A stretch of 54,714 nucleotides of DNA, from positions 1 to 54,714 of the forward strand of contig JANQJS010000010.1 of assembly GCA_028281535.1 (NCBI GenBank), in the 5' to 3' direction. The notes under the pieces were generated by a model. The model had not been told where the DNA came from, did not search any database, and worked only from the letters and a program-made list of their open reading frames with translations. Positions 1,315-15,471 of this stretch are shown here, one piece after another. How positions within the stretch are numbered: position 1 is the stretch's first letter; the number at the start of each line of letters is the position of its first letter. Both the position numbers and the translations under genes were made by a program. The DNA is from Sedimentisphaerales bacterium (lineage in GTDB: Bacteria; Planctomycetota; Phycisphaerae; Sedimentisphaerales; SM23-30).

Positions 1315-3375
1315 TTAAGACTTAGCGTTTTGAATACTTTCTTTCGCCGCGGCAACCACGTTTTCTGTGGTGATGCCGAACTGTTTGAAGCATTCTTTTG
1401 CTGGAGCAGATGCACCGTAGCCGGTCATACCGATGAATTTTCCGTTGTCACCGATATATTTTTCCCAGCCTTGTTGAATACCTGCTTCAACCGCTACGCG
1501 AGCTTTGACGCTTGGCGGTAAGACGCTATCTTTATAAGCTTGATCTTGTTGATCAAACAATTCCCAACATGGCATAGAAACCACGCTGGCTTTAACGCCC
1601 TCTTTTTCTAAGCTTTCAGCTGCTTCCATCGCCAGTGAAAGTTCTGAGCCAGTACCGATCAAGACAACATCAGGATTGTCACTGCCACAAACCACGTAAG
1701 CACCTTTGGCCACGTTAGCAGCAGACGCACATTTGGTTTGATCCAAGGTTGGACAACCTTGACGGGTCAGAACAATCAGGTGCGGCTGATTGCGATTTTC
1801 CAGCATGTACTTCCAAACCTGTGCGGTTTCATTCGCTTCGGCTGGACGGAAAATATTGACACCTGGAATCGCACGCATCGCGGCCATATGTTCCACCGGC
1901 TGGTGGGTTGGACCATCTTCACCCAAGCCAATACTATCGTGGGTAAAGACAAAGATCGTTGGATAATGCGACAAACCAGCCAATCGAATGGTCGGACGCA
2001 TGTAATCCGTAAAGCAGTAGAAGGTCGCACCGTAAGGAATCAACATATTGCTCACGGCAATCCCGTTCATCACAGCACCCATGCCATGCTCACGCACACC
2101 ATAACGCATGTAACGACCGCCCCACTGGCCCTTCTGAAAATCTTCCGCTCCTTTAAAGCGAGTATTGTTAGACGGAGTCAAGTCCGCCGAGCCACCGATC
2201 ACCATAGGAAGATGCGGCATAATCGCATCCAAGGTTTTACCCGACGCCTGACGTGTTGCCAAAGCTTCGCCACCAGGAAAGACTGGTAAATGATCATCTA
2301 AATTCACCGGCAATTTCTTCGCCGCGGCATCACGGAACTCTTTTGCGAGCTCTGGATGCGCTTTTTCATATTCGCCGAACTTGGCATCCCATTCGGTTTG
2401 CCACTGAGCACCACGCTCCTGGCACTTGGAAAATTCAGCTTTCGCTTCGTCAGGAACATGGAATGATTTTTCCGGATCCCAACCAGCGTTTTCTTTAATT
2501 AGTTTAATTTCATCATCACCCAGCGGTGCACCGTGAGCGGTATGTGTATCCTGGAAGTTTGGACTGCCATAACCAATGTGCGTACGCAATTGAATCATGG
2601 TTGGTTGTCCTGTGTGAGCTTGTGCCGCTTCGATTGCTTTTTCAAACGCGGCCATATCATTGCCATCACCATCAACGACAATCACATTCCAGCCATAAGA
2701 CTCATAACGCTTGGCGGTATCTTCGGTGAAACTTAAATCGGTATCACCATCAATCGTAATGCGATTGTCATCATACACCACGATCAAGTTATCCAAACCT
2801 AAGTGACCCGCAAGCGAACATGCTTCAGAAGAAACGCCTTCTTCCAAGCAACCATCACCGGCAATCACATAGATGTTGTAATCAATCACATCAAAACCAT
2901 CACGGTTGAAGTATTCAGCCAAATACTTTTCAGCCACCGCCATACCGACGGCATTTGAAATACCTTGACCTAAAGGACCGGTCGTGACTTCAACACCTTC
3001 GGTATATCCATACTCTGGATGGCCAGGTGTTTTACTTTCCCACTGACGAAAGTTTTTCAAATCATCCAACGTCATATCATAACCGCAAAGATGCAGCATC
3101 GAGTAGATAAGCATACTACCGTGCCCAGCAGACAAAACAAAACGATCACGATTGTGCCATTTTGCATTGGCTGGATTGTGTTTCATATATTTGGTCCAGA
3201 GCTTATACGCTGCAGGAGCCATGCCCATTGGCATACCAGGGTGACCTGATTTGGCCTTCTGCACACCTTCCATGGATAGAAAGCGAATCGTTTGAACACA
3301 CAGTTCGTCAAGTTCAGATAGACCGGGATGTTTCGAAGCGTTGGCCGCCATTTTTTCTAATACCTCTGTCGTCAT
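1315..3375 (-). CDS. tkt: transketolase
   Basis: Transketolase transfers two-carbon ketol units between sugar phosphates in the non-oxidative pentose phosphate pathway, using thiamine diphosphate. The 686-aa length is typical. Visible motifs are the N-terminal substrate-binding SGHPGMPMG (about residues 42-50), the thiamine-diphosphate motif starting GDGCLEEGVSSEA (about 173-185), the central GGSADLTPSN, and the pyrimidine-domain segment YGVREHGMGA with FVFTHDSIGLGEDGPTHQP. ATG at 3375 begins a normal N-terminus ending in the helix before LSMEGVQKAKSGHP. It is a single-gene unit with its own promoter (3444-3472) and terminator (1241-1272). Nothing in the protein is unusual. Confidence 0.97.
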   Translation of the reverse strand: MTTEVLEKMAANASKHPGLSELDELCVQTIRFLSMEGVQKAKSGHPGMPMGMAPAAYKLWTKYMKHNPANAKWHNRDRFVLSAGHGSMLIYSMLHLCGYDMTLDDLKNFRQWESKTPGHPEYGYTEGVEVTTGPLGQGISNAVGMAVAEKYLAEYFNRDGFDVIDYNIYVIAGDGCLEEGVSSEACSLAGHLGLDNLIVVYDDNRITIDGDTDLSFTEDTAKRYESYGWNVIVVDGDGNDMAAFEKAIEAAQAHTGQPTMIQLRTHIGYGSPNFQDTHTAHGAPLGDDEIKLIKENAGWDPEKSFHVPDEAKAEFSKCQERGAQWQTEWDAKFGEYEKAHPELAKEFRDAAAKKLPVNLDDHLPVFPGGEALATRQASGKTLDAIMPHLPMVIGGSADLTPSNNTRFKGAEDFQKGQWGGRYMRYGVREHGMGAVMNGIAVSNMLIPYGATFYCFTDYMRPTIRLAGLSHYPTIFVFTHDSIGLGEDGPTHQPVEHMAAMRAIPGVNIFRPAEANETAQVWKYMLENRNQPHLIVLTRQGCPTLDQTKCASAANVAKGAYVVCGSDNPDVVLIGTGSELSLAMEAAESLEKEGVKASVVSMPCWELFDQQDQAYKDSVLPPSVKARVAVEAGIQQGWEKYIGDNGKFIGMTGYGASAPAKECFKQFGITTENVVAAAKESIQNAKS

Positions 3376-3443
3376 GGTTTAGATCCCTATATTTGGTAAG
3401 TTTACATTTAACACACTCAGTGGATCCCACTTAATTCTGTCCG

Positions 3444-3472
3444 ATAATAATAGATACAAAAAGAAGCGTCAA
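3444..3472 (-). promoter_or_regulatory. sigma-70-type promoter of tkt
   Basis: On the minus strand TTGACG (3472-3467) and TATTAT (3449-3444) are separated by exactly 17 bases, with transcription expected to start near 3437 about 60 bases before the ATG. The bases after the -10 box, CGGACAGA, are shared with the region upstream of pilM (see findings). Confidence 0.7.
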
Positions 3473-3589
3473 GCGAAACCCTCGGTGCGCGTACTACACA
3501 CAATTAGACTTATATTTCATCGGGAGATTGGCTAAACAACTAAAGTAAGAAATCGCAACCACATCAAATTCTAGCAAGCAGACATTTGT

Positions 3590-3605
3590 AAAGTAAATTT
3601 ACTTT
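3590..3605 (-). terminator. 16-bp perfect palindrome after the kinase gene (possible weak terminator)
   Basis: AAAGTAAATTTACTTT is a perfect palindrome beginning 6 bases beyond the stop of the minus-strand gene at 3612. The stem is AT-rich and no proper T-run follows, so termination is uncertain; it could also be a protein-binding site. Confidence 0.35.
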
Positions 3606-3611
3606 CGCGTT

Positions 3612-4436
3612 TTACTTCCAACGTGATGGGTCTGTTTCTGGATTGTATTGCGACAAATCATCCGTCACCAACTTACCTTGACGATAGAGCATGCCTAAAA
3701 ACTTACGCCGCAATAGAAGAAATGGGCGAAATAACAATCGATGCCATTGAATCCATTGACTCTTTTTTCGTGATGCTTCGATTTCCTGCTCGGTCATCAG
3801 ATCAGGCCGTAAACGCCGCTTATGCTTGTATAAGTGATAGATATCCTCTTTCTGAAGATTCGCTAAAATCGGTTGATAAAACTTTTGAATCAACTTAAGT
3901 GGCGCATCGCCAATCCAGGAAATCTGAAAATCAATCATGTATGGCTTACCATCTTCGCCCAGCAAAATATTCCCACGCTTATTCATATCCACATAGGCCA
4001 CACGACGCTGATGAATCCGCTGAATCACATTTTCCAATTCATCAAAAAAAGTATCAGGCAAGAGAGGCTTTTCATCCAAAGACTCCCCTTCAACATATTC
4101 ATATAATAAACCAAATTCCCGATAGGGTCCTATAAGCTTTGGTATACCACGAATCCCCTGCAAACGCTTGAGCACCCCTTCTTCATGATCATTAATCAAC
4201 CGACCTAGCCATGCTAATGGAAATCCACAAAAATCTCTTTTTCGCGACCATTTCAAAATTACTTTAGGGGCAACGTGATCACCCCCTTCGCACTGACGAT
4301 CCAATTCATACATCGCCGTCGCGGCAAAGAAATCATGCTTATAGACCACACGCCTATTATATAAGAATCGATCAATCTCGATGGTCTTGGGCAAACCACT
4401 CTTGCCACATGCTTTTAATTGATAGCCGATTGACAT
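3612..4436 (-). CDS. small kinase-like protein (LPS-kinase/RIO-like fold)
   Basis: A 274-aa single-domain protein kinase-like fold. The candidate ATP-binding lysine is in VILK (K62), the hinge is LLYEYVEGESL (about 111-120), the catalytic-loop equivalent is AYVDMNKRGNILL with D150 and N156, and the metal-binding DFG equivalent is IDFQ (D169). This arrangement resembles the WaaP/KdkA lipopolysaccharide kinases and RIO/AarF-type small kinases rather than classical Ser/Thr kinases. The substrate cannot be told from sequence; a sugar or lipid of the envelope is possible. The C-terminal 80 residues are Arg/Lys/Trp-rich (HKRRLRPDLMTEQEIEASRK) and might face a membrane. There is no partner gene, and 3376-3611 upstream of tkt separates the two minus-strand units. 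Confidence 0.75.
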   Translation of the reverse strand: MSIGYQLKACGKSGLPKTIEIDRFLYNRRVVYKHDFFAATAMYELDRQCEGGDHVAPKVILKWSRKRDFCGFPLAWLGRLINDHEEGVLKRLQGIRGIPKLIGPYREFGLLYEYVEGESLDEKPLLPDTFFDELENVIQRIHQRRVAYVDMNKRGNILLGEDGKPYMIDFQISWIGDAPLKLIQKFYQPILANLQKEDIYHLYKHKRRLRPDLMTEQEIEASRKKSQWIQWHRLLFRPFLLLRRKFLGMLYRQGKLVTDDLSQYNPETDPSRWK

Positions 4437-4544
4437 AGACTTCTAAATTATTCCTGTAAAGAATCTCATTTGATTCTTGGTATATCAAAAAATTGTATTA
4501 CAAACTAATAAAATTCAAAATAGATACAAAATCGCTTTTAACAC

Positions 4545-4567
4545 CCAGGTATTATCGGGCCTACCTG
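4545..4567 (+). other. small inverted repeat in gene-free region 4437-5290
   Basis: CAGGTA and TACCTG flank TTATCGGGCC, giving a 6-bp stem with a 10-base loop. The remaining part of 4437-4753 is AT-rich and shows no gene. Confidence 0.3.
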
Positions 4568-4753
4568 CTCTCTTGTTTTAACTTATTGTAAAAAATATGG
4601 TTACAGAAACAACAATTAATCATTATTTATTTACCACATGCTATTTTCCTTAAATCTCATCTAACTTAACAAAAATATATTTTATTTAAACGACATATAC
4701 TTCTTATTTACAATAACTTACAAATTTACGCGTAATTTTAAGCCAGATAACAA

Positions 4754-4783
4754 TTGACAAAACAGGGGTAAATCGATTAATAT
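4754..4783 (+). promoter_or_regulatory. promoter of the GAGAG-hairpin RNA region
   Basis: A perfect -35 box TTGACA (4754-4759) is followed after 18 bases by TAATAT (4778-4783). A start near 4790 would put the first predicted hairpin (4796-4811) at the 5' end of the transcript. There is no open reading frame between here and the PEP-CTERM gene at 5291. Confidence 0.6.
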
Positions 4784-4789
4784 TAACTA

Positions 4790-5215
4790 CATAAAGGATA
4801 GTAAGATATCCGATATATGGAGAGAGTAAAAAGAGGAGAGAGCAACAGCCTGCCAAAGAACCGATAGCGGTTTTGGTTATTATTTAAGTGGAGAGATTTA
4901 AATAATAAAATACCCAAGTTCGCACAGGACGTTGAGATACTTTTTTTACTGTGACCCAATTAATGGTTAGTGAATGAGAGCACGCTAACTAACAATTAAA
5001 TATGACTAGGAAATTGTACCTGGGACGGAGAGAGAGAGATTTCCATCCCCTGTGTCTAATAAATTCCAAGAATTAATCACGCGCCGATGATTATGAGAGA
5101 GTCATCGAATATGCGCGAGATAATTTTTCATAGGAATGGGAGAGAGACAAATCACTAATTTCCAAATGAACGTATGATGAATATCCGTTTATACCACCAT
5201 TGGATATTCATTTGT
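4790..5215 (+). ncRNA. candidate structured RNA or long leader with repeated GAGAG loops
   Basis: No gene is present, yet the stretch is rich in hairpins, several with the sequence GGAGAG or GAGAG in the loop. Stems seen by eye: 4796-4811 (5 bp); 4853-4876 (CCG/CGG core, about 9 bp with bulges); 4877-4908 (11 bp perfect, loop GTGGAGAGAT); 4966-4989 (GTTAG/CTAAC, loop includes AATGAGAG); 5022-5049 (GGGACGG/CCATCCC with one mismatch, loop AGAGAGAGAT); 5080-5117 (CGCGC..CGATGA/TCATCG..GCGCG, loop TTATGAGAGAG); 5177-5211 (10 bp perfect ATGAATATCC/GGATATTCAT). Further GAGAG copies lie at 4819-4826, 4834-4841 and 5138-5146. The next gene's ribosome binding site, GGGAGAG at 5281-5287, carries the same motif. 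It may be a stand-alone RNA ending near 5215 or the leader of the PEP-CTERM mRNA. Multiple GGA loops recall CsrA-sequestering RNAs, but this is an analogy only. It does not look like RNase P RNA, tmRNA or 6S RNA. Confidence 0.55.
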
Positions 5216-10052: not shown

Positions 10053-10118
10053 ATACATATTTTAACTGAAGATTGCACAGGTTTTCACAGATTTAAATTC
10101 AAATCACATTAAATTTCA

Positions 10119-10520
10119 TTACGGTCTACGACCACCATACTTTTTAATAAGTGCTCTTAAATCCTTTTGTGTTTTTATATCAGAGTGAAAATATACATCG
10201 CAGCAGAAATAGCCTTCCATGATTGTTTCTTGCCCATCTGGGAATGAAAAAAGAGTATATCCATAGTCGTTCGTACAATGATGTGTCTTAAACCAAAATT
10301 CTGCATGTCTTCCATTCGCAAATAGTATTTTACCACACTGTAAACACTCTTCTCTTAACAGAGTAGTACGATAATTTTTATATTCATTGTCAAGCTTAAG
10401 GGTATCTATTGGGTATTTAATCTTTGCTTGCCTAAGCTCCTCAATCGTTTTGTCATCTTCTGAGAAATGAAAGACGAAAGGAATGATTAATAAAACCGCT
10501 AGAAATTTAAAATACTTCAT
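10119..10520 (-). CDS. small secreted or membrane-anchored protein of unknown function, 133 aa
   Basis: The first 18 residues (MKYFKFLAVLLIIPFVFH) form a signal peptide or signal anchor. The rest is a polar domain of about 110 residues with six Cys, including ECLQCG (about residues 58-63) and a CC pair (EGYFCCDVYF), suggesting a disulfide-rich or metal-binding periplasmic domain. No family recognised. The downstream (3') end of the upstream minus-strand gene is 30 bases away, so it may be co-transcribed with the agmatine-deiminase-like gene. Confidence 0.65.
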   Translation of the reverse strand: MKYFKFLAVLLIIPFVFHFSEDDKTIEELRQAKIKYPIDTLKLDNEYKNYRTTLLREECLQCGKILFANGRHAEFWFKTHHCTNDYGYTLFSFPDGQETIMEGYFCCDVYFHSDIKTQKDLRALIKKYGGRRP

Positions 10521-10550
10521 GTTATAAAAAACCTATAGATATCCTATCTT

Positions 10551-11597
10551 TTAGTTTTTTGCTGCTATATTTAAAAGTTTTTCAGCGTTTTTTCCAGATT
10601 GCTGCCATACAAGACATCGAGCGCTGCCACCCATGAAACAAACATTTTTACTGGGGATAGGAATAACAGTTTTGGTGGTATTATTGCGAACGAGATCCAA
10701 TACCTCTTGATCGATGGGGAGATCAAATTGAGGCAAGTAGATGGCTTGATTTGTCACAACAGCGTTGACGTAAACGCCACAGGCTGAACTGAATGCAGGA
10801 TCCCAAATTTCTTTGTCCCATTGGACAGGACATTCAATTATCGTTATATCATCAAAGGCACGTTGCAATTCAGCCATAACATGGGTTCGAAATGGTTCGT
10901 CGTATTGATTGACAAATAAGGTATTTTCATCGGTGAACATGACCATGCCATCGACGTGGGCCAAACCTTCAGGATCATCATTTGGGATGATGGCTATTTG
11001 CGATGTTTTGAATAACTTGCGCAATACTCTAAGTCCCCTTCCTTTATCCCGATTGTTATCTTCTAAGAAACGATCGGTAACAATAATTTTATCTTTATTG
11101 TTCGAAACAAAATTACCGCCATCAAGAATATATCTTTTCTTTTTGTAAGAGACTTTTGCTCGTTTTGCCATTTTTCGAAACTGTTTTTGCACATAATCTG
11201 CATCACGTTGGCTTCCTGCTTGCGCAGCAGATGCATAGCGAAATTGTAATGGAGAGGATGGCATAACTGAGGAAAAATCTCGGATCCAAATATCTTCCAT
11301 AGGTTGCAATAACAAATGTTTATCAGGGAGATGCTGAGCCATGAGATTATGGGCTTTCTGGTCAACCAAAATAACAACGTTATCCAGATCTTGTTCTATG
11401 ATGGCTTTGGAATAGGCGATTTGATAATCAATAATGTCTTGATAGACATTAGCGTAGTAGGCCTCGTCTTTTTTTGGTGCTGCAAGAACCAGAACCATTT
11501 TAGGAGAAATGGCCTGCTCTTTTTTCTTGGCGTATGAAGGTTCGACACTCAACAAACAAACGCTAAAACAAAAAAGAGTTATACCAATCCATCTCAT
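10551..11597 (-). CDS. exported agmatine deiminase-family protein (porphyromonas-type PAD fold)
   Basis: Agmatine/peptidylarginine deiminase family enzymes hydrolyse guanidino groups to ureido groups. The fold's motifs are present: WIRDFSSV (substrate Asp), DGGNFV, GLAHVDGMVMF (catalytic His) and GGSARCLVWQQ with the catalytic Cys near the C-terminus. Unlike cytosolic agmatine deiminase, this protein has a signal peptide (MRWIGITLFCFSVCLLSVEP, cleavage near SYA), so it acts outside the cytoplasm. I prefer ATG at 11597 over GTG at 11606 because GGAG sits 8 bases before that ATG; the GTG itself lies inside this ribosome binding region. The physiological substrate is unknown. Confidence 0.85.
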   Translation of the reverse strand: MRWIGITLFCFSVCLLSVEPSYAKKKEQAISPKMVLVLAAPKKDEAYYANVYQDIIDYQIAYSKAIIEQDLDNVVILVDQKAHNLMAQHLPDKHLLLQPMEDIWIRDFSSVMPSSPLQFRYASAAQAGSQRDADYVQKQFRKMAKRAKVSYKKKRYILDGGNFVSNNKDKIIVTDRFLEDNNRDKGRGLRVLRKLFKTSQIAIIPNDDPEGLAHVDGMVMFTDENTLFVNQYDEPFRTHVMAELQRAFDDITIIECPVQWDKEIWDPAFSSACGVYVNAVVTNQAIYLPQFDLPIDQEVLDLVRNNTTKTVIPIPSKNVCFMGGSARCLVWQQSGKNAEKLLNIAAKN

Positions 11598-11842
11598 TAT
11601 ACACACTCCATTTTATGCTTAATTACATTCAACATTGATTCATGTTTTCAAACAGTCAATATCGTCTGCATTATAGCACTATTGTTCTCTAAAGAGATTA
11701 AGAAATTTTCCTGATGACTAAAATCGATTCTGATATAGAGAAAAATGGAGCTCAGTCGTAATTTATCAGTAAAATGTAACAATTTATGTATGAAAATGTG
11801 ACCTAAATCGTCTATATTAATGTTCTGTAAGGTCGACACCAC
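11598..11842. other. gene-free stretch upstream of the tRNA-like genes
   Basis: AT-rich sequence with no convincing ORF on either strand. It separates the divergent agmatine-deiminase-like gene and the tRNA-like unit, so it presumably carries the promoter of the former; no consensus promoter for it could be picked with confidence. Confidence 0.4.
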
Positions 11843-11870
11843 TTGATTTGACGCCATTCTGATATATAAT
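11843..11870 (+). promoter_or_regulatory. promoter of the tandem tRNA-like unit
   Basis: TTGATT (11843-11848), 16 bases, TATAAT (11865-11870). Predicted start near 11877, about 30 bases before the first tRNA-like element. Confidence 0.6.
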
Positions 11871-11908
11871 TAAGCTAAAATCACATATGTTTGACCAAAA
11901 ATCTCAAT

Positions 11909-11980
11909 GAGACTGTAGCTCAGCTGGAAGAGCGTCGGCCGGCAAGCTGAAGGACGGAGGTTCGAACCCTCCCAGTCTCA
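11909..11980 (+). tRNA. tRNA-like element 1, abnormal anticodon arm
   Basis: Acceptor GAGACTG (11909-11915)/CAGTCTC (11973-11979), D arm GCTC-AGCTGGAA-GAGC (11918-11933), variable AGGAC, T arm GGAGG-TTCGAAC-CCTCC (11956-11972): a textbook tRNA cloverleaf. The anticodon arm is not normal. Between base 26 and the variable loop there are 16 bases instead of 17: stem TCGGC/GCTGA and a six-base loop CGGCAA. The universal U33 is absent. An Ala (GGC) or Cys (GCA) reading is conceivable but neither fits. Base 73 (A11980) can pair with T11908, extending the acceptor stem to 8 bp. No CCA is encoded. Confidence 0.7.
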
Positions 11981-11982
11981 AT

Positions 11983-12070
11983 CGTCGAGGTTGTAGCTCA
12001 GCTGGAAGAGCACGAGAGAATCAAATCTCAAGGACGCTGGTTCGATCCCAGCCAACCTCGACGCTTTTTT
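11983..12070 (+). terminator. terminator-like end of the tRNA-like unit
   Basis: The extended 11-bp outer stem of element 2 (11983-11993 with 12053-12063) is followed directly by C and six T (12065-12070). This could serve as the 3' end of the transcript, or fold as the tRNA-like body; read-through would continue into the gene at 12083. Confidence 0.4.
11987..12060 (+). tRNA. tRNA-like element 2, abnormal anticodon arm
   Basis: Begins 6 bases after element 1. Acceptor GAGGTTG/CAACCTC (12053-12059), D arm identical to element 1 (11996-12011), variable AGGAC identical, T arm GCTGG-TTCGATC-CCAGC (12036-12052). The anticodon arm has 18 bases instead of 17: GAGA/TCTC with an outer C-A mismatch and an eight-base loop GAATCAAA (12018-12025). 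A normal position 33 T followed by a seven-base loop cannot be built. The acceptor stem extends outward by CGTC/GACG to 11 bp (11983-12063), so base 73 is paired. No CCA is encoded. Possible anticodon readings (TCA or CAA) are speculative. Confidence 0.7.
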
Positions 12071-12082
12071 GAAAGTTAACAA

Positions 12083-12772
12083 ATGACTATTGAATATCGA
12101 CATTACAAAATATGCATTGACATCTTACGAAGAGAAATCGAAACACCTACTCATTTTATTTCTACGCGTGATGGCCAATTATTGGTGGCAGCTTATAAAG
12201 CACTTGCGAAGCAACGCTACCACTGGCAAGCATTGCATGCAAAAGCAGCAAAATCCAATATCCCAGAATTACACTTTCACAATTTCTATTGCGCCTGCGT
12301 CTTGTTACACAACATTAATAAAGGTGAACTAAGCAAAGTTCATTTATCCTCTAAAATGCATAAGAAAATAGCGAAAGCTTGTAAAATGGCTCCGCAAAGA
12401 AAGCAAATCACCGCACCAGAGATCAAAGCAACAAAAGGATGTAGTGATATAGAGATTACAAAACAGGTCCTTAAATCTATCCCTAAAATAAAACATCATC
12501 AATATGATATGGACAGCATTTTTCATTATTGCAAAGTGTTATACAAAAAACATCTCAATAAAAATACATACGCATTTAAAGATGATAAACGTTATATAGG
12601 TGTAGAAAGTTATTGGACAAAAAGATTTTTATACAACTACACAAAAGATTGGGACAATAACAATATATCGAAAGTACTTGATGCAATGATGATGAATCCC
12701 TACTCAATTCCAGACATGACCTTATTTAAAGGTTTGCTAGTAAAGGCAAATAAAATTATAAATAATAAATAA
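12083..12772 (+). CDS. hypothetical basic protein, 229 aa
   Basis: I do not recognise this family. The protein is soluble-looking and strongly basic, with many Lys, His and Tyr, for example HLSSKMHKKIAKACK and APQRKQ in the middle, which would suit nucleic-acid binding. It appears helical, with no signal peptide or membrane segment. ATG at 12083 is the first possible start, because an in-frame TAA lies two codons upstream, and only a weak GAAAG precedes it. It lies 13 bases past the T-run that ends the tRNA-like unit and 26 bases before the SDR-like gene, so it probably heads a three-gene operon. Overlapping shorter ORFs in other frames were judged to be shadows. Confidence 0.7.
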   Translation: MTIEYRHYKICIDILRREIETPTHFISTRDGQLLVAAYKALAKQRYHWQALHAKAAKSNIPELHFHNFYCACVLLHNINKGELSKVHLSSKMHKKIAKACKMAPQRKQITAPEIKATKGCSDIEITKQVLKSIPKIKHHQYDMDSIFHYCKVLYKKHLNKNTYAFKDDKRYIGVESYWTKRFLYNYTKDWDNNNISKVLDAMMMNPYSIPDMTLFKGLLVKANKIINNK

Positions 12773-12798
12773 TTTTACTCATAGTAAATAAACGAATC

Positions 12799-14151
12799 AT
12801 GAAATCAGACCAATATACTTCTATGTTAGACACATTACAAAAATGGGCAGACAACCCCCATTTGATTGATGATCAGGATCAGATTAAATCCTTAATTACC
12901 AAAATCTATAAATCTGCCAGAAAAAGTCGTCGGTTTGATAAGCATATAAAACGAAAAACGCATGACCAGCTCGCTTGTGAAACAACCTCACGCTGTAGCG
13001 CAGAACGATTGATCTCAGATACCGCAGGAGATAGAGTTGAAGCGTTAGAAATCAATAACCCAACTCCGCTACAGGGCACATTAAAATGCTACATCTGCAA
13101 ACAGCCTTACAGTTCGCTCGATAGCCATTATCACATGCTTTGCCCAACCTGTGCTCAGGAAAATCGAGACAAACGCATTCAACGAACCGACCTGTCTGGC
13201 CGCAAGGCATTGCTCACTGGCGGACGAATCAAAATTGGTTTTTATTTGGCTTTAAAAATGCTGCGTGATGGCGCAGAGGTTTGGGCAACAACGCGATTTC
13301 CTGTGGATGCAGTAAAACGGTTTTCGGCACAAGATGATTATGACCATTGGGCCCATCGGCTGCATATCATAGAACTGAATTTATTGAATCTTCCTTTTGT
13401 TGAACAATTGGCTCATAAATTAACGAGTCAGGAGATTTACTTTGATATCATTATTAACAATGCCGCACAGACCATCAAACGTCCTGAAGCCTATTACCAT
13501 CAACTAACCCAGAATGAGAAGCAACATCAACTGAATGACCATCAACAGAAATTAATCTCAACACTTGATAGCCCTCCCCTACAAACATCAACGGATATTA
13601 TGGGAGACATATCACGCTATTTTCCTGAAGGGCTCTATAGTGCTGATGGCCAACCACTTGATCTGCGTGAACAAAATAGTTGGACATTAAAACAAGAAGA
13701 TGTGACGATGCAGGAATTGCTTGAAGTTCATATTATTAATAGTTTTTCTCCCTATGTTTTAATTAATGTTCTGAAAGCAGGCATGTTAAAATCTTCGAAT
13801 CGTCCTCGATTTATTGTAAATGTCTCGGCAATGGAAGGTAGTTTTAGTCGCCATAATAAAACAGCCAACCATCCACACACCAACATGGCCAAAGCCGCCA
13901 TGAATATGATCACTCGCACCAGCGCGTCTGATTTCGTCAAAGATGATATTTATATGAATAGCGTTGATACAGGTTGGATTACCGAAGAAAATCCCTTTCC
14001 GCGTAAAAAGGCGAAACGCGAAAAAGGTTTTGTTCCTCCACTGGATGAGATTGATGGTGCTGCGAGAATCTATGCACCGATTGTAGAAGGTTTGAATCAC
14101 AAGGCTGAGTATGGCAAGTTCCTCAAAGATTATAAGGAATATCCATGGTAG
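12799..14151 (+). CDS. SDR-fold protein with N-terminal zinc ribbon and no catalytic Tyr
   Basis: A 450-aa protein. Residues 1-90 are unrecognised. Residues 97-118 hold CYIC and CPTC (C97, C100, C115, C118), a probable zinc ribbon. From about 131 a Rossmann-fold short-chain dehydrogenase/reductase domain follows: nucleotide-binding LLTGGRIKIG (about 138-147), INNAA (219-223), and the active-site strand with S343 in NVSAMEG. The usual Y-x-x-x-K is TNMAK here: K365 is kept but position 361 is Thr, so ordinary dehydrogenase chemistry is doubtful. An insertion of about 80 residues (225-305) separates INNAA from the active-site strand. No ribosome binding site is visible. The stop overlaps the start of the LRR gene by 7 bases, so the two are translationally coupled. 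Confidence 0.85.
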   Translation: MKSDQYTSMLDTLQKWADNPHLIDDQDQIKSLITKIYKSARKSRRFDKHIKRKTHDQLACETTSRCSAERLISDTAGDRVEALEINNPTPLQGTLKCYICKQPYSSLDSHYHMLCPTCAQENRDKRIQRTDLSGRKALLTGGRIKIGFYLALKMLRDGAEVWATTRFPVDAVKRFSAQDDYDHWAHRLHIIELNLLNLPFVEQLAHKLTSQEIYFDIIINNAAQTIKRPEAYYHQLTQNEKQHQLNDHQQKLISTLDSPPLQTSTDIMGDISRYFPEGLYSADGQPLDLREQNSWTLKQEDVTMQELLEVHIINSFSPYVLINVLKAGMLKSSNRPRFIVNVSAMEGSFSRHNKTANHPHTNMAKAAMNMITRTSASDFVKDDIYMNSVDTGWITEENPFPRKKAKREKGFVPPLDEIDGAARIYAPIVEGLNHKAEYGKFLKDYKEYPW

Positions 14152-15290
14152 CACCAGAAAAAGTACAATGCAAAATATATCCACTGGACACTTTTGTTCC
14201 TTGTGATCCGGTTGAATTAGTTGAAATAAAAGAGGCCCTTGCTGCGTCCTTTTCAGGTAAAAAGACTTGCCAACGTGGCACTATTACTCAAGACCAGCGT
14301 CTTGATATGTGTAAACAAAATCTAGGTCCAGAAGGTCTGGCAACTTTAATCCCCCAACTCAAAGACAATAACTTTATCAAAACCATTCTTCTGGGAACCA
14401 ATGGACTGGGAAATGAAGGCGTCGAAAATGTTGCATCGATTATTCAAGGTAATCAGAAAATCGAGACCATCTATCTAGGTTGCAACGGTATTACCGCAGA
14501 AGGTATAGATCATCTTGGCAAGGCAATTGCCATAAACAATAGTATAAAAAGCCTTTGGCTTAAACGAAATCCTATTGGCGATGCAGGTGCAGCGGCTCTT
14601 GCCAAACATTTTACTAAAGGTACGAACTTGAGAACCTTAGACTTAGTTCATACCGCCCTAAGTACAACTGGTTTATCACAGATTATCGATTCACTCATAA
14701 ATGGAAAATCTCCCATCGAAAGACTCTTTTTGGGTGCTAACAATTTTACTGCCGAGATTATCCCCATCTTGATACGATTTATCAACCAAACCCCCTCACT
14801 TAAAGAACTTTATCTACCCGTTAATGAACTTTATGATAGTGGCATAGAACAACTTCTCAATCATCCAGCCACCCAACAACTCACAACATTAGGACTTGGT
14901 GCCAACGGACTAACGGACAACGTCATTGCTTCAATCAACACAAAGAATCTTCCTAACTTAATTTATTTAGATCTATCCAATCCTATATCAACTAAAAAAC
15001 TTCAAGGTAAATCCAACGTCATTACAGACCAAGGAGCTATCCATTTTTCTAATGATATTGCTCATTGGAAAAAAATCGAGACCATCAACCTTACCCTCGA
15101 GGATATATCATACCATGGAGCTCAAACACTGATTGAAGCGGCCATAGATTCAAGCTCACTGAAAAGATTATATTTACATCACCTCAATCTAACCAGCCAT
15201 CAAATAACTCTTTTGAATACATTTCATCAACACAGAGAAGCACCCAATATTCCACAGGATATTATAGCTATAAAAAGTGTTTACCGGTAA
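14145..15290 (+). CDS. leucine-rich repeat (RNI-like) protein
   Basis: A 381-aa protein. After about 65 N-terminal residues it is built of ribonuclease-inhibitor-type leucine-rich repeats of 27-29 residues with the pattern LxLxxNxLxxxGxxxL, for example IKTILLGTNGLGNEGVENV, IETIYLGCNGITAEGIDHL and IKSLWLKRNPIGDAGAAAL, continuing to about residue 365. Such folds bind proteins; no enzymatic motif is visible and there is no signal peptide, so it acts inside the cell. AAGGA lies 7 bases before the ATG, inside the end of the SDR-like gene, which it overlaps by 7 bases. The coupling suggests that the two proteins work together. Last gene of the plus-strand cluster. Confidence 0.88.
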   Translation: MVAPEKVQCKIYPLDTFVPCDPVELVEIKEALAASFSGKKTCQRGTITQDQRLDMCKQNLGPEGLATLIPQLKDNNFIKTILLGTNGLGNEGVENVASIIQGNQKIETIYLGCNGITAEGIDHLGKAIAINNSIKSLWLKRNPIGDAGAAALAKHFTKGTNLRTLDLVHTALSTTGLSQIIDSLINGKSPIERLFLGANNFTAEIIPILIRFINQTPSLKELYLPVNELYDSGIEQLLNHPATQQLTTLGLGANGLTDNVIASINTKNLPNLIYLDLSNPISTKKLQGKSNVITDQGAIHFSNDIAHWKKIETINLTLEDISYHGAQTLIEAAIDSSSLKRLYLHHLNLTSHQITLLNTFHQHREAPNIPQDIIAIKSVYR

Positions 15291-15429
15291 AAGGAATAGA
15301 GAATAATATCTTTTAAAGATTTAATAGACGAATAAATATACCTATGACTTTTAATCTATTCGATGGATTTAAGATTTCTTTCTCTCGACGTTGCTCGGAC
15401 AAGCTATGTGGCTTCGCCTTAGTCGAAAC

Positions 15430-15448
15430 GACTATTCTTTAAATAGTC
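15430..15448. other. hairpin between convergent units
   Basis: GACTATT-cttta-AATAGTC, a 7-bp perfect stem between the LRR gene (plus) and the pilin-like gene (minus). No T-run follows on either strand, so it is only a possible terminator or binding site. The rest of 15291-15471 shows nothing. Confidence 0.35.
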
Positions 15449-15471
15449 ATTAGTAAGTGCCCTTGCCCTAC

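What the first reader, a model, noticed from the sequence alone, without database searches (positions are those of the whole stretch)
11909..12060. Two tandem tRNA-like genes with six- and eight-base anticodon loops and no U33
Acceptor, D and T arms are orthodox and share identical D arms and variable loops, but the anticodon arms are one base short (element 1, loop CGGCAA) and one base long (element 2, loop GAATCAAA). Neither loop is a normal seven-base one with U33, base 73 is paired in both, and the acceptor stem of element 2 extends to 11 bp. Such RNAs are unlikely to decode normally. They have their own promoter (TTGATT-16-TATAAT) and a T-run end. They may be regulatory tRNA mimics, precursors for a non-ribosomal use, or decayed tRNAs.
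Basis: seen in the sequence. Interest (0 to 1): 0.7.

Follow-up and report, generated by a model that had tools for sequence, protein, structure and literature searches.

The report
Two tRNA-like genes unable to decode
A bacterium carries two side-by-side genes that look like intact transfer RNAs except that the loop which should read the genetic code is one base too short in one and one base too long in the other, so they probably do something other than build protein, or are the remains of imported tRNAs.

Summary
Two cloverleaf tRNA-like genes lie in tandem at 11909-11980 and 11987-12060. Their anticodon loops are CGGCAA (6 nt) and GAATCAAA (8 nt); neither has U33. Both pass Rfam's tRNA threshold; ARAGORN gives neither an isotype. 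All other arms are intact apart from C27-A43 in element 2. The genome has 44 other full-length tRNA genes covering all amino acids, so the pair is not needed for decoding. No counterpart was found in 161 genomes of the order; 42 viral contigs with the same D arm all have a normal-sized anticodon region. The pair lies in a 5.4-kb stretch not seen at this place in family genomes, 22 nt ahead of a three-gene operon headed by an orphan ORF. I find non-decoding tRNA-like RNAs slightly likelier than relics of imported tRNAs; one genome cannot settle it. The promoter claim is weak; a paired base 73 and a following T-run are ordinary here; the 11-bp acceptor helix of element 2 is not. In passing I found a conserved, covarying tRNA-like gene (loop AAATACAC, no U33), always between an XrtA/PEP-CTERM FemAB-family gene and a glycosyltransferase gene, in Planctomycetota and one Acidobacteria contig.

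The parts
11909..11980 (+). Element 1: tRNA-like gene, 6-nt anticodon loop CGGCAA (11940-11945), A73, no encoded CCA
11987..12060 (+). Element 2: tRNA-like gene, 8-nt anticodon loop GAATCAAA (12018-12025), C27-A43 mismatch, G73, no encoded CCA
11983..11986 (+). CGTC, 5' half of the 4-bp extension of the acceptor helix of element 2 (pairs with 12060-12063)
   Evidence: (I5); at most 2 extra pairs in 44 ordinary tRNA genes
12060..12070 (+). GACG, 3' half of the extension, then C and TTTTTT
11843..11870 (+). Promoter-like site TTGATT-16-TATAAT upstream of element 1; not above chance by the scan
12083..12772 (+). Orphan ORF of 229 aa, 22 nt after element 2; in-frame TAA at 12077-12079 means it cannot start earlier
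12799..14151 (+). 450-aa protein with two separated short-chain-dehydrogenase segments; C-terminal part also matches phrog_3142
14145..15290 (+). 381-aa leucine-rich-repeat protein, overlaps the previous gene by 7 nt
10053..15471 (.). Extra stretch of about 5.4 kb between the bifunctional-nuclease gene and the pseudopilin gene; in three family genomes the two genes are about 75-100 nt apart

Best explanation
Two tRNA-derived genes that make stable, folded RNAs not used for decoding. Shown: intact acceptor, D and T arms, abnormal anticodon loops without U33, a full ordinary tRNA set elsewhere, and a position in a lineage-specific stretch 22 nt ahead of a three-gene operon whose first ORF cannot start earlier. 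Inferred: they are transcribed together with that operon from a promoter upstream of element 1, recognised as pre-tRNAs by RNase P and 3' nucleases through the intact acceptor/T/D part, cut out (leaving a short leader on the operon mRNA) and CCA-tailed, but kept out of the ribosome's decoding site by the loop. Constraint would then rest on the elbow and acceptor and not on the anticodon loop. Most likely use, by inference only: tRNA mimics or processing signals belonging to this operon; an amino-acid-donor role outside translation is possible but has no known partner enzyme here.
For: All pairs of acceptor, D and T stems are Watson-Crick in both elements; the differences between the two in the acceptor (2 pairs) and T stems (2 pairs) are compensated on both sides. 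The anticodon loops are the altered part; if each change had fallen at random along the gene, one of one (element 1) and three of three (element 2, number of changes is my estimate) falling in the loop would have probabilities of about 0.1 and 0.001 (crude). 44 other full-length tRNA genes cover all amino acids. Odd loop sizes are rare: with the same D arm, 42 viral contigs have the normal 18-nt anticodon region and none 17 or 19 nt; in 161 genomes of the order the 8-nt-type pattern hits only this gene, and the 6-nt-type pattern hits only this gene besides seven sequences that read as ordinary tRNAs, six of tRNA-His type. Precedent in the same class: tRNA-like genes with an invariant AAATACAC loop without U33 are conserved with covarying stems.
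Against: Only one genome, so conservation of the odd loops cannot be shown. No expression data. The promoter is not above chance. Element 2 has one stem mismatch. The extended acceptor helix of element 2 may hinder RNase P and 3' processing (general knowledge). No gene of the stretch is a known aminoacyl-tRNA user, and the genome has no TIGR03019 match. The compensated differences may predate the loop changes, or reflect two different parental tRNAs.
Confidence: 0.45

Rival explanations
1. Relics: two ordinary tRNAs brought in with the 5.4-kb stretch (phage or other mobile origin), redundant with the host set, that lost decoding by small changes in the anticodon loop and are on their way out.
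For: Lineage-specific stretch with an orphan gene; the operon's second gene matches a viral family; the host set is complete without them; element 1's loop can be read as CTGGCAA minus U33, and its closest phylum matches that were inspected are ordinary Ala(GGC) and Arg tRNAs; C27-A43 mismatch in element 2.
Against: All other helices perfect in both genes; several changes in the loop of element 2 but almost none elsewhere; no long flanking repeats; no viral relative of the pair.
Confidence: 0.38
2. Cis-acting leader: the tandem tRNA-like folds act in the 5' leader of the operon mRNA, with the 11-bp helix plus TTTTTT of element 2 working as a terminator or attenuator.
For: Only 22 nt between element 2 and the start codon, so the operon transcript very probably contains the elements; helix extension beyond anything in 44 ordinary tRNA genes; T6 run directly after it.
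Against: The terminator scan finds none; the helix closes a four-way junction rather than a hairpin; T-rich flanks are common after ordinary tRNAs here.
Confidence: 0.08
3. Unusual but decoding tRNAs, for example frameshift suppressors (8-nt loop) or a tRNA with a compact 6-nt loop.
For: An extra loop base is typical of +1 suppressor tRNAs (general knowledge); acceptor and elbow are intact.
Against: U33 is absent in both, whereas suppressor loops keep it (general knowledge); a complete ordinary set exists.
Confidence: 0.05
4. Sequencing or assembly error in the loops of normal tRNAs.
For: Draft assembly of 67 contigs.
Against: No long homopolymer in either loop; two neighbouring loops would have to be wrong in opposite directions; the loop of element 2 needs several changes to become normal.
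Confidence: 0.03

Closest known systems
Pseudo-tRNA tRNAOther of Bacillus cereus (PMC3399842)
   Same: tRNA-like gene not needed for translation, next to imported DNA, possibly part of a larger transcript.
   Different: tRNAOther has a Trp (CCA) anticodon, is known in several related strains and has expression data and deletion phenotypes; here the anticodon loops are the wrong size, the genes are two in tandem, and nothing is known experimentally.
FemAB-linked tRNA-like gene of Planctomycetota and Acidobacteria (found here)
   Same: Eight-base anticodon loop without U33 in an otherwise tRNA-like cloverleaf; lies tightly inside an operon.
   Different: That family has loop AAATACAC, a bulged base in the T stem, and sits between TIGR03019-type femAB and TIGR03087-type glycosyltransferase genes; none of this holds for the window elements.
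Staphylococcal tRNA-Gly isoacceptors for peptidoglycan (cited in PMC3399842)
   Same: tRNAs withdrawn from translation by their sequence and used by an aminoacyl-tRNA-dependent enzyme.
   Different: No such enzyme is known to be linked here, and the loop anatomy differs.
Yeast mitochondrial tRNA-Thr with 8-nt anticodon loop (PMC7609411)
   Same: Enlarged 8-nt anticodon loop in a natural tRNA.
   Different: It decodes and has a recognisable UAG anticodon; the window's 8-nt loop has no U33.

Membership tests
tRNA-derived gene (Rfam RF00005) | Score above the curated gathering score over the whole model | tested here: met
   56.1 and 50.4 bits against 29, model positions 1-71 of 71
Decoding tRNA | Seven-base anticodon loop | tested here: not met
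   6 and 8 bases
Decoding tRNA | U33 before the anticodon | tested here: not met
   Loops CGGCAA and GAATCAAA
Decoding tRNA | 7-bp acceptor, 5-bp T stem, GG in D loop, TTCRA in T loop | tested here: met
Allo-tRNA (8/5 or 9/3 acceptor/T stems) | Acceptor and T stems of 8/5 or 9/3 bp with a long variable arm | tested here: not met
   7/5 with a 5-nt variable loop
FemAB-linked tRNA-like family | Loop AAATACAC (or AATACAC) and a bulged base in the T stem | tested here: not met
FemAB-linked tRNA-like family | Location between TIGR03019-type and TIGR03087-type genes | tested here: not met
   No TIGR03019 match in the genome
Pseudo-tRNA like B. cereus tRNAOther | Does not function in translation | not testable with these tools
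   Needs polysome and charging data; loop anatomy makes it likely
Pseudo-tRNA like B. cereus tRNAOther | Associated with an imported genomic stretch | tested here: inconclusive
   The 5.4-kb stretch is not found at this place in family genomes, but no mobile-element gene or flanking repeat proves import
+1 frameshift suppressor tRNA | Eight-base loop that keeps U33 | tested here: not met
   Element 2 has the size but no U33; element 1 has 6 bases

The most novel reading that the evidence does not exclude
The pair are dedicated non-decoding tRNAs that are charged with an amino acid for use outside the ribosome, one local instance of a wider, unrecognised practice in this phylum, of which the FemAB-linked AAATACAC tRNA-like family is a conserved example.
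Probability: 0.12. Interest if true: 0.85.

Novelty: new variant of a known kind. Interest (0 to 1): 0.45.

Why it matters
If the RNAs are made and kept, they would be a rare case of tRNAs freed from decoding while keeping the parts that processing enzymes and synthetases read, which makes it testable what holds a tRNA's shape once the anticodon no longer matters. If they are relics, they record an import into one lineage. The FemAB-linked family found on the way is the stronger lead: it suggests tRNAs reserved for an enzyme family related to aminoacyl-tRNA-dependent transferases in exopolysaccharide/XrtA loci.

Tried and rejected
The patterns had an off-by-one in the T arm and do not match the window elements; nevertheless found the FemAB-linked family because that family has an extra base there. 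BLAST hits of the pair in relatives, phages and plasmids that were checked are ordinary tRNAs, mostly Ala, Ile, Arg, Val, Lys. The orphan ORF has no homologue in 148 relatives, phages, plasmids or viral contigs, no NCBIfam or PADLOC match and no significant Pfam match, and its single-sequence structure prediction is useless (mean pLDDT 38), so no fold search was made. G014:C96 (L125), the only good relative of the SDR-like protein, is masked and looks chimeric, so it gives no context. Alternative pairings of the anticodon arms giving seven-base loops were tried by hand and need mismatches. No paper joining PEP-CTERM, FemAB and tRNA is in the library; the two papers with exosortase, XrtA and tRNA concern sponge-associated bacteria.

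Full report
What was checked. ARAGORN finds both but calls them 'tRNA-???' with anticodons 'gc' and 'atca'. Rfam's tRNA model accepts both over its full length, 56.1 and 50.4 bits with a gathering score of 29, at the low end of this genome's set. Segmenting gives, for element 1: GAGACTG-TA-GCTC-AGCTGGAA-GAGC-G-TCGGC-CGGCAA-GCTGA-AGGAC-GGAGG-TTCGAAC-CCTCC-CAGTCTC-A; for element 2: GAGGTTG-TA-GCTC-AGCTGGAA-GAGC-A-CGAGA-GAATCAAA-TCTCA-AGGAC-GCTGG-TTCGATC-CCAGC-CAACCTC-G. Acceptor, D and T stems are fully Watson-Crick in both; the anticodon stem has one G-U in element 1 and one C-A mismatch in element 2. Element 2 folds to the cloverleaf by energy alone; element 1 has a different unmodified optimum.

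The loop sizes and the missing U33 are. Base 73 pairing is not odd: 17 of the 44 ordinary tRNA genes of the genome pair base 73 with base -1. The 4-bp extension of the acceptor helix of element 2 is odd: the ordinary genes extend by at most 2. The promoter-like site matches 10 of 12 positions, but the scan expects about two such sites by chance in this stretch. T-rich flanks follow many ordinary tRNAs here.

Are they needed? The genome (4.44 Mb, 67 contigs, 99.4% complete) has 44 other full-length tRNA genes with assignable anticodons covering all twenty amino acids, among them Ala GGC and TGC and four Arg anticodons. So the pair is not needed for decoding.

Are they found elsewhere? With patterns of the right spacing, 161 genomes of the order give the 8-nt type only here and the 6-nt type only here besides seven sequences that read as ordinary tRNAs, six of them of tRNA-His type. 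BLAST of the pair in 148 relatives, 129 genomes of the phylum, phages and plasmids finds partial matches; those checked are ordinary tRNAs. In 2.9 million viral contigs, the same D arm followed by a normal 18-nt anticodon region occurs in 42 contigs, with 17 or 19 nt in none. Of 355 tRNAs on those viral stretches ARAGORN leaves one without an isotype. Odd arms are therefore rare, and this pair is so far private to this genome. No other genome of the same genus was among those searched, so a genus-wide presence is untested.

Neighbourhood. In three family genomes the bifunctional-nuclease gene and the convergent pseudopilin gene of the secretion cluster are 74-101 nt apart (L118, L119, L120); in a fourth (L121) the cluster follows after 87 nt in a different internal order; in a fifth (L117) they are 2.5 kb apart with no tRNA found. 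In the window the same genes are separated by 5.4 kb (10053-15471) holding a small ORF, a PAD_porph (agmatine/peptidyl-arginine deiminase-like) gene, the tRNA-like pair, an orphan 229-aa ORF, an SDR-like 450-aa protein and an LRR protein. The place may therefore take up extra DNA readily. The orphan ORF starts 22 nt after element 2 and has an in-frame stop just upstream of its ATG, so its transcript very probably starts at or before the tRNA-like genes. I infer, but have not shown, that pair and operon are co-transcribed.

How it may work. The pattern of constraint is what one would expect if processing enzymes, CCA addition and perhaps a synthetase still see the RNA while the ribosome does not: elbow and acceptor kept, anticodon loop free. 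The stem differences between the two elements are compensated. A crude count says that loop-only changes are unlikely if changes fell at random (about 0.1 for element 1, about 0.001 for element 2 with three assumed changes). But one genome cannot distinguish 'kept' from 'not yet decayed', and loop changes may have been selected merely to silence a harmful imported tRNA. I give 0.45 to non-decoding functional RNAs and 0.38 to relics.

A conserved precedent found on the way. A mis-spaced pattern hit five genomes of the same class in a tRNA-like gene with loop AAATACAC, eight bases, no U33. A scan of one genome per species found six contigs, five labelled Planctomycetota or Planctomycetales and one Acidobacteria. 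In all six the gene lies between a relative of the TIGR03019 protein (FemAB family XrtA/PEP-CTERM system-associated) and a relative of the TIGR03087 glycosyltransferase; in the Acidobacteria case the two proteins are 37% and 39% identical to the planctomycete ones. A seventh, found by ARAGORN among 30 femAB loci, has a seven-base loop AATACAC. Across seven sequences all 21 pairs are kept, six with changes on both sides against 1.8 on average in shuffles, and the T stem has a bulged base in all. Of the 30 femAB loci read, 11 have the glycosyltransferase next door and 5 of those carry the tRNA-like gene. FemAB-type enzymes use aminoacyl-tRNA as donor (general knowledge), so a dedicated non-decoding donor tRNA is the obvious idea; it is untested. 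The papers searched do not mention it. The window elements are not members: different loops, no bulge, different neighbours, and no TIGR03019 match in this genome.

Verdict. Observation confirmed; interpretation partly supported; either a new variant of the known kind 'tRNA-like genes outside translation', or relics of imported tRNAs.

Noticed in passing
L082-L086, L087-L092, L131-L133, L135, L153 (e.g. L085:1486-1560, minus strand): Conserved tRNA-like gene with 8-nt loop AAATACAC (7-nt AATACAC in L153), no U33, bulged T stem, always between a TIGR03019-type femAB gene and a TIGR03087-type glycosyltransferase gene in Planctomycetota and one Acidobacteria contig; stems covary. Possibly a dedicated aminoacyl donor for the FemAB-type enzyme.
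   Followed up: partly
G000:C27:28372-30926 (L043, L079): tRNA copies outside the main set: Leu(TAG) of unusual shape, Ile(GAT) with imperfect acceptor, Phe with anticodon AAA, Lys(TTT), spaced over 2.5 kb; may be another imported array.
   Followed up: no
G000:C23:89102-109025 (L046, L078): A 57-nt-long partial copy of tRNA-Thr(TGT), 3' part, about 20 kb from the intact gene on the same strand, as left by an element integrated into the tRNA gene.
   Followed up: no
window 12799-14151: 450-aa protein with two separated short-chain-dehydrogenase segments; best viral family match phrog_3142 (FabG-like, E 7e-36) over its C-terminal part.
   Followed up: partly
L117 (G012:C108), about 2430-4965: At the same place between nuclease and pseudopilin genes another family member has 2.5 kb of extra DNA without a tRNA, so the spot may be a recurrent insertion site.
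   Followed up: no
L125 (G014:C96): Contig with masked stretches in which an SDR-like frame runs into valS on the other strand; looks like a mis-assembly.
   Followed up: no
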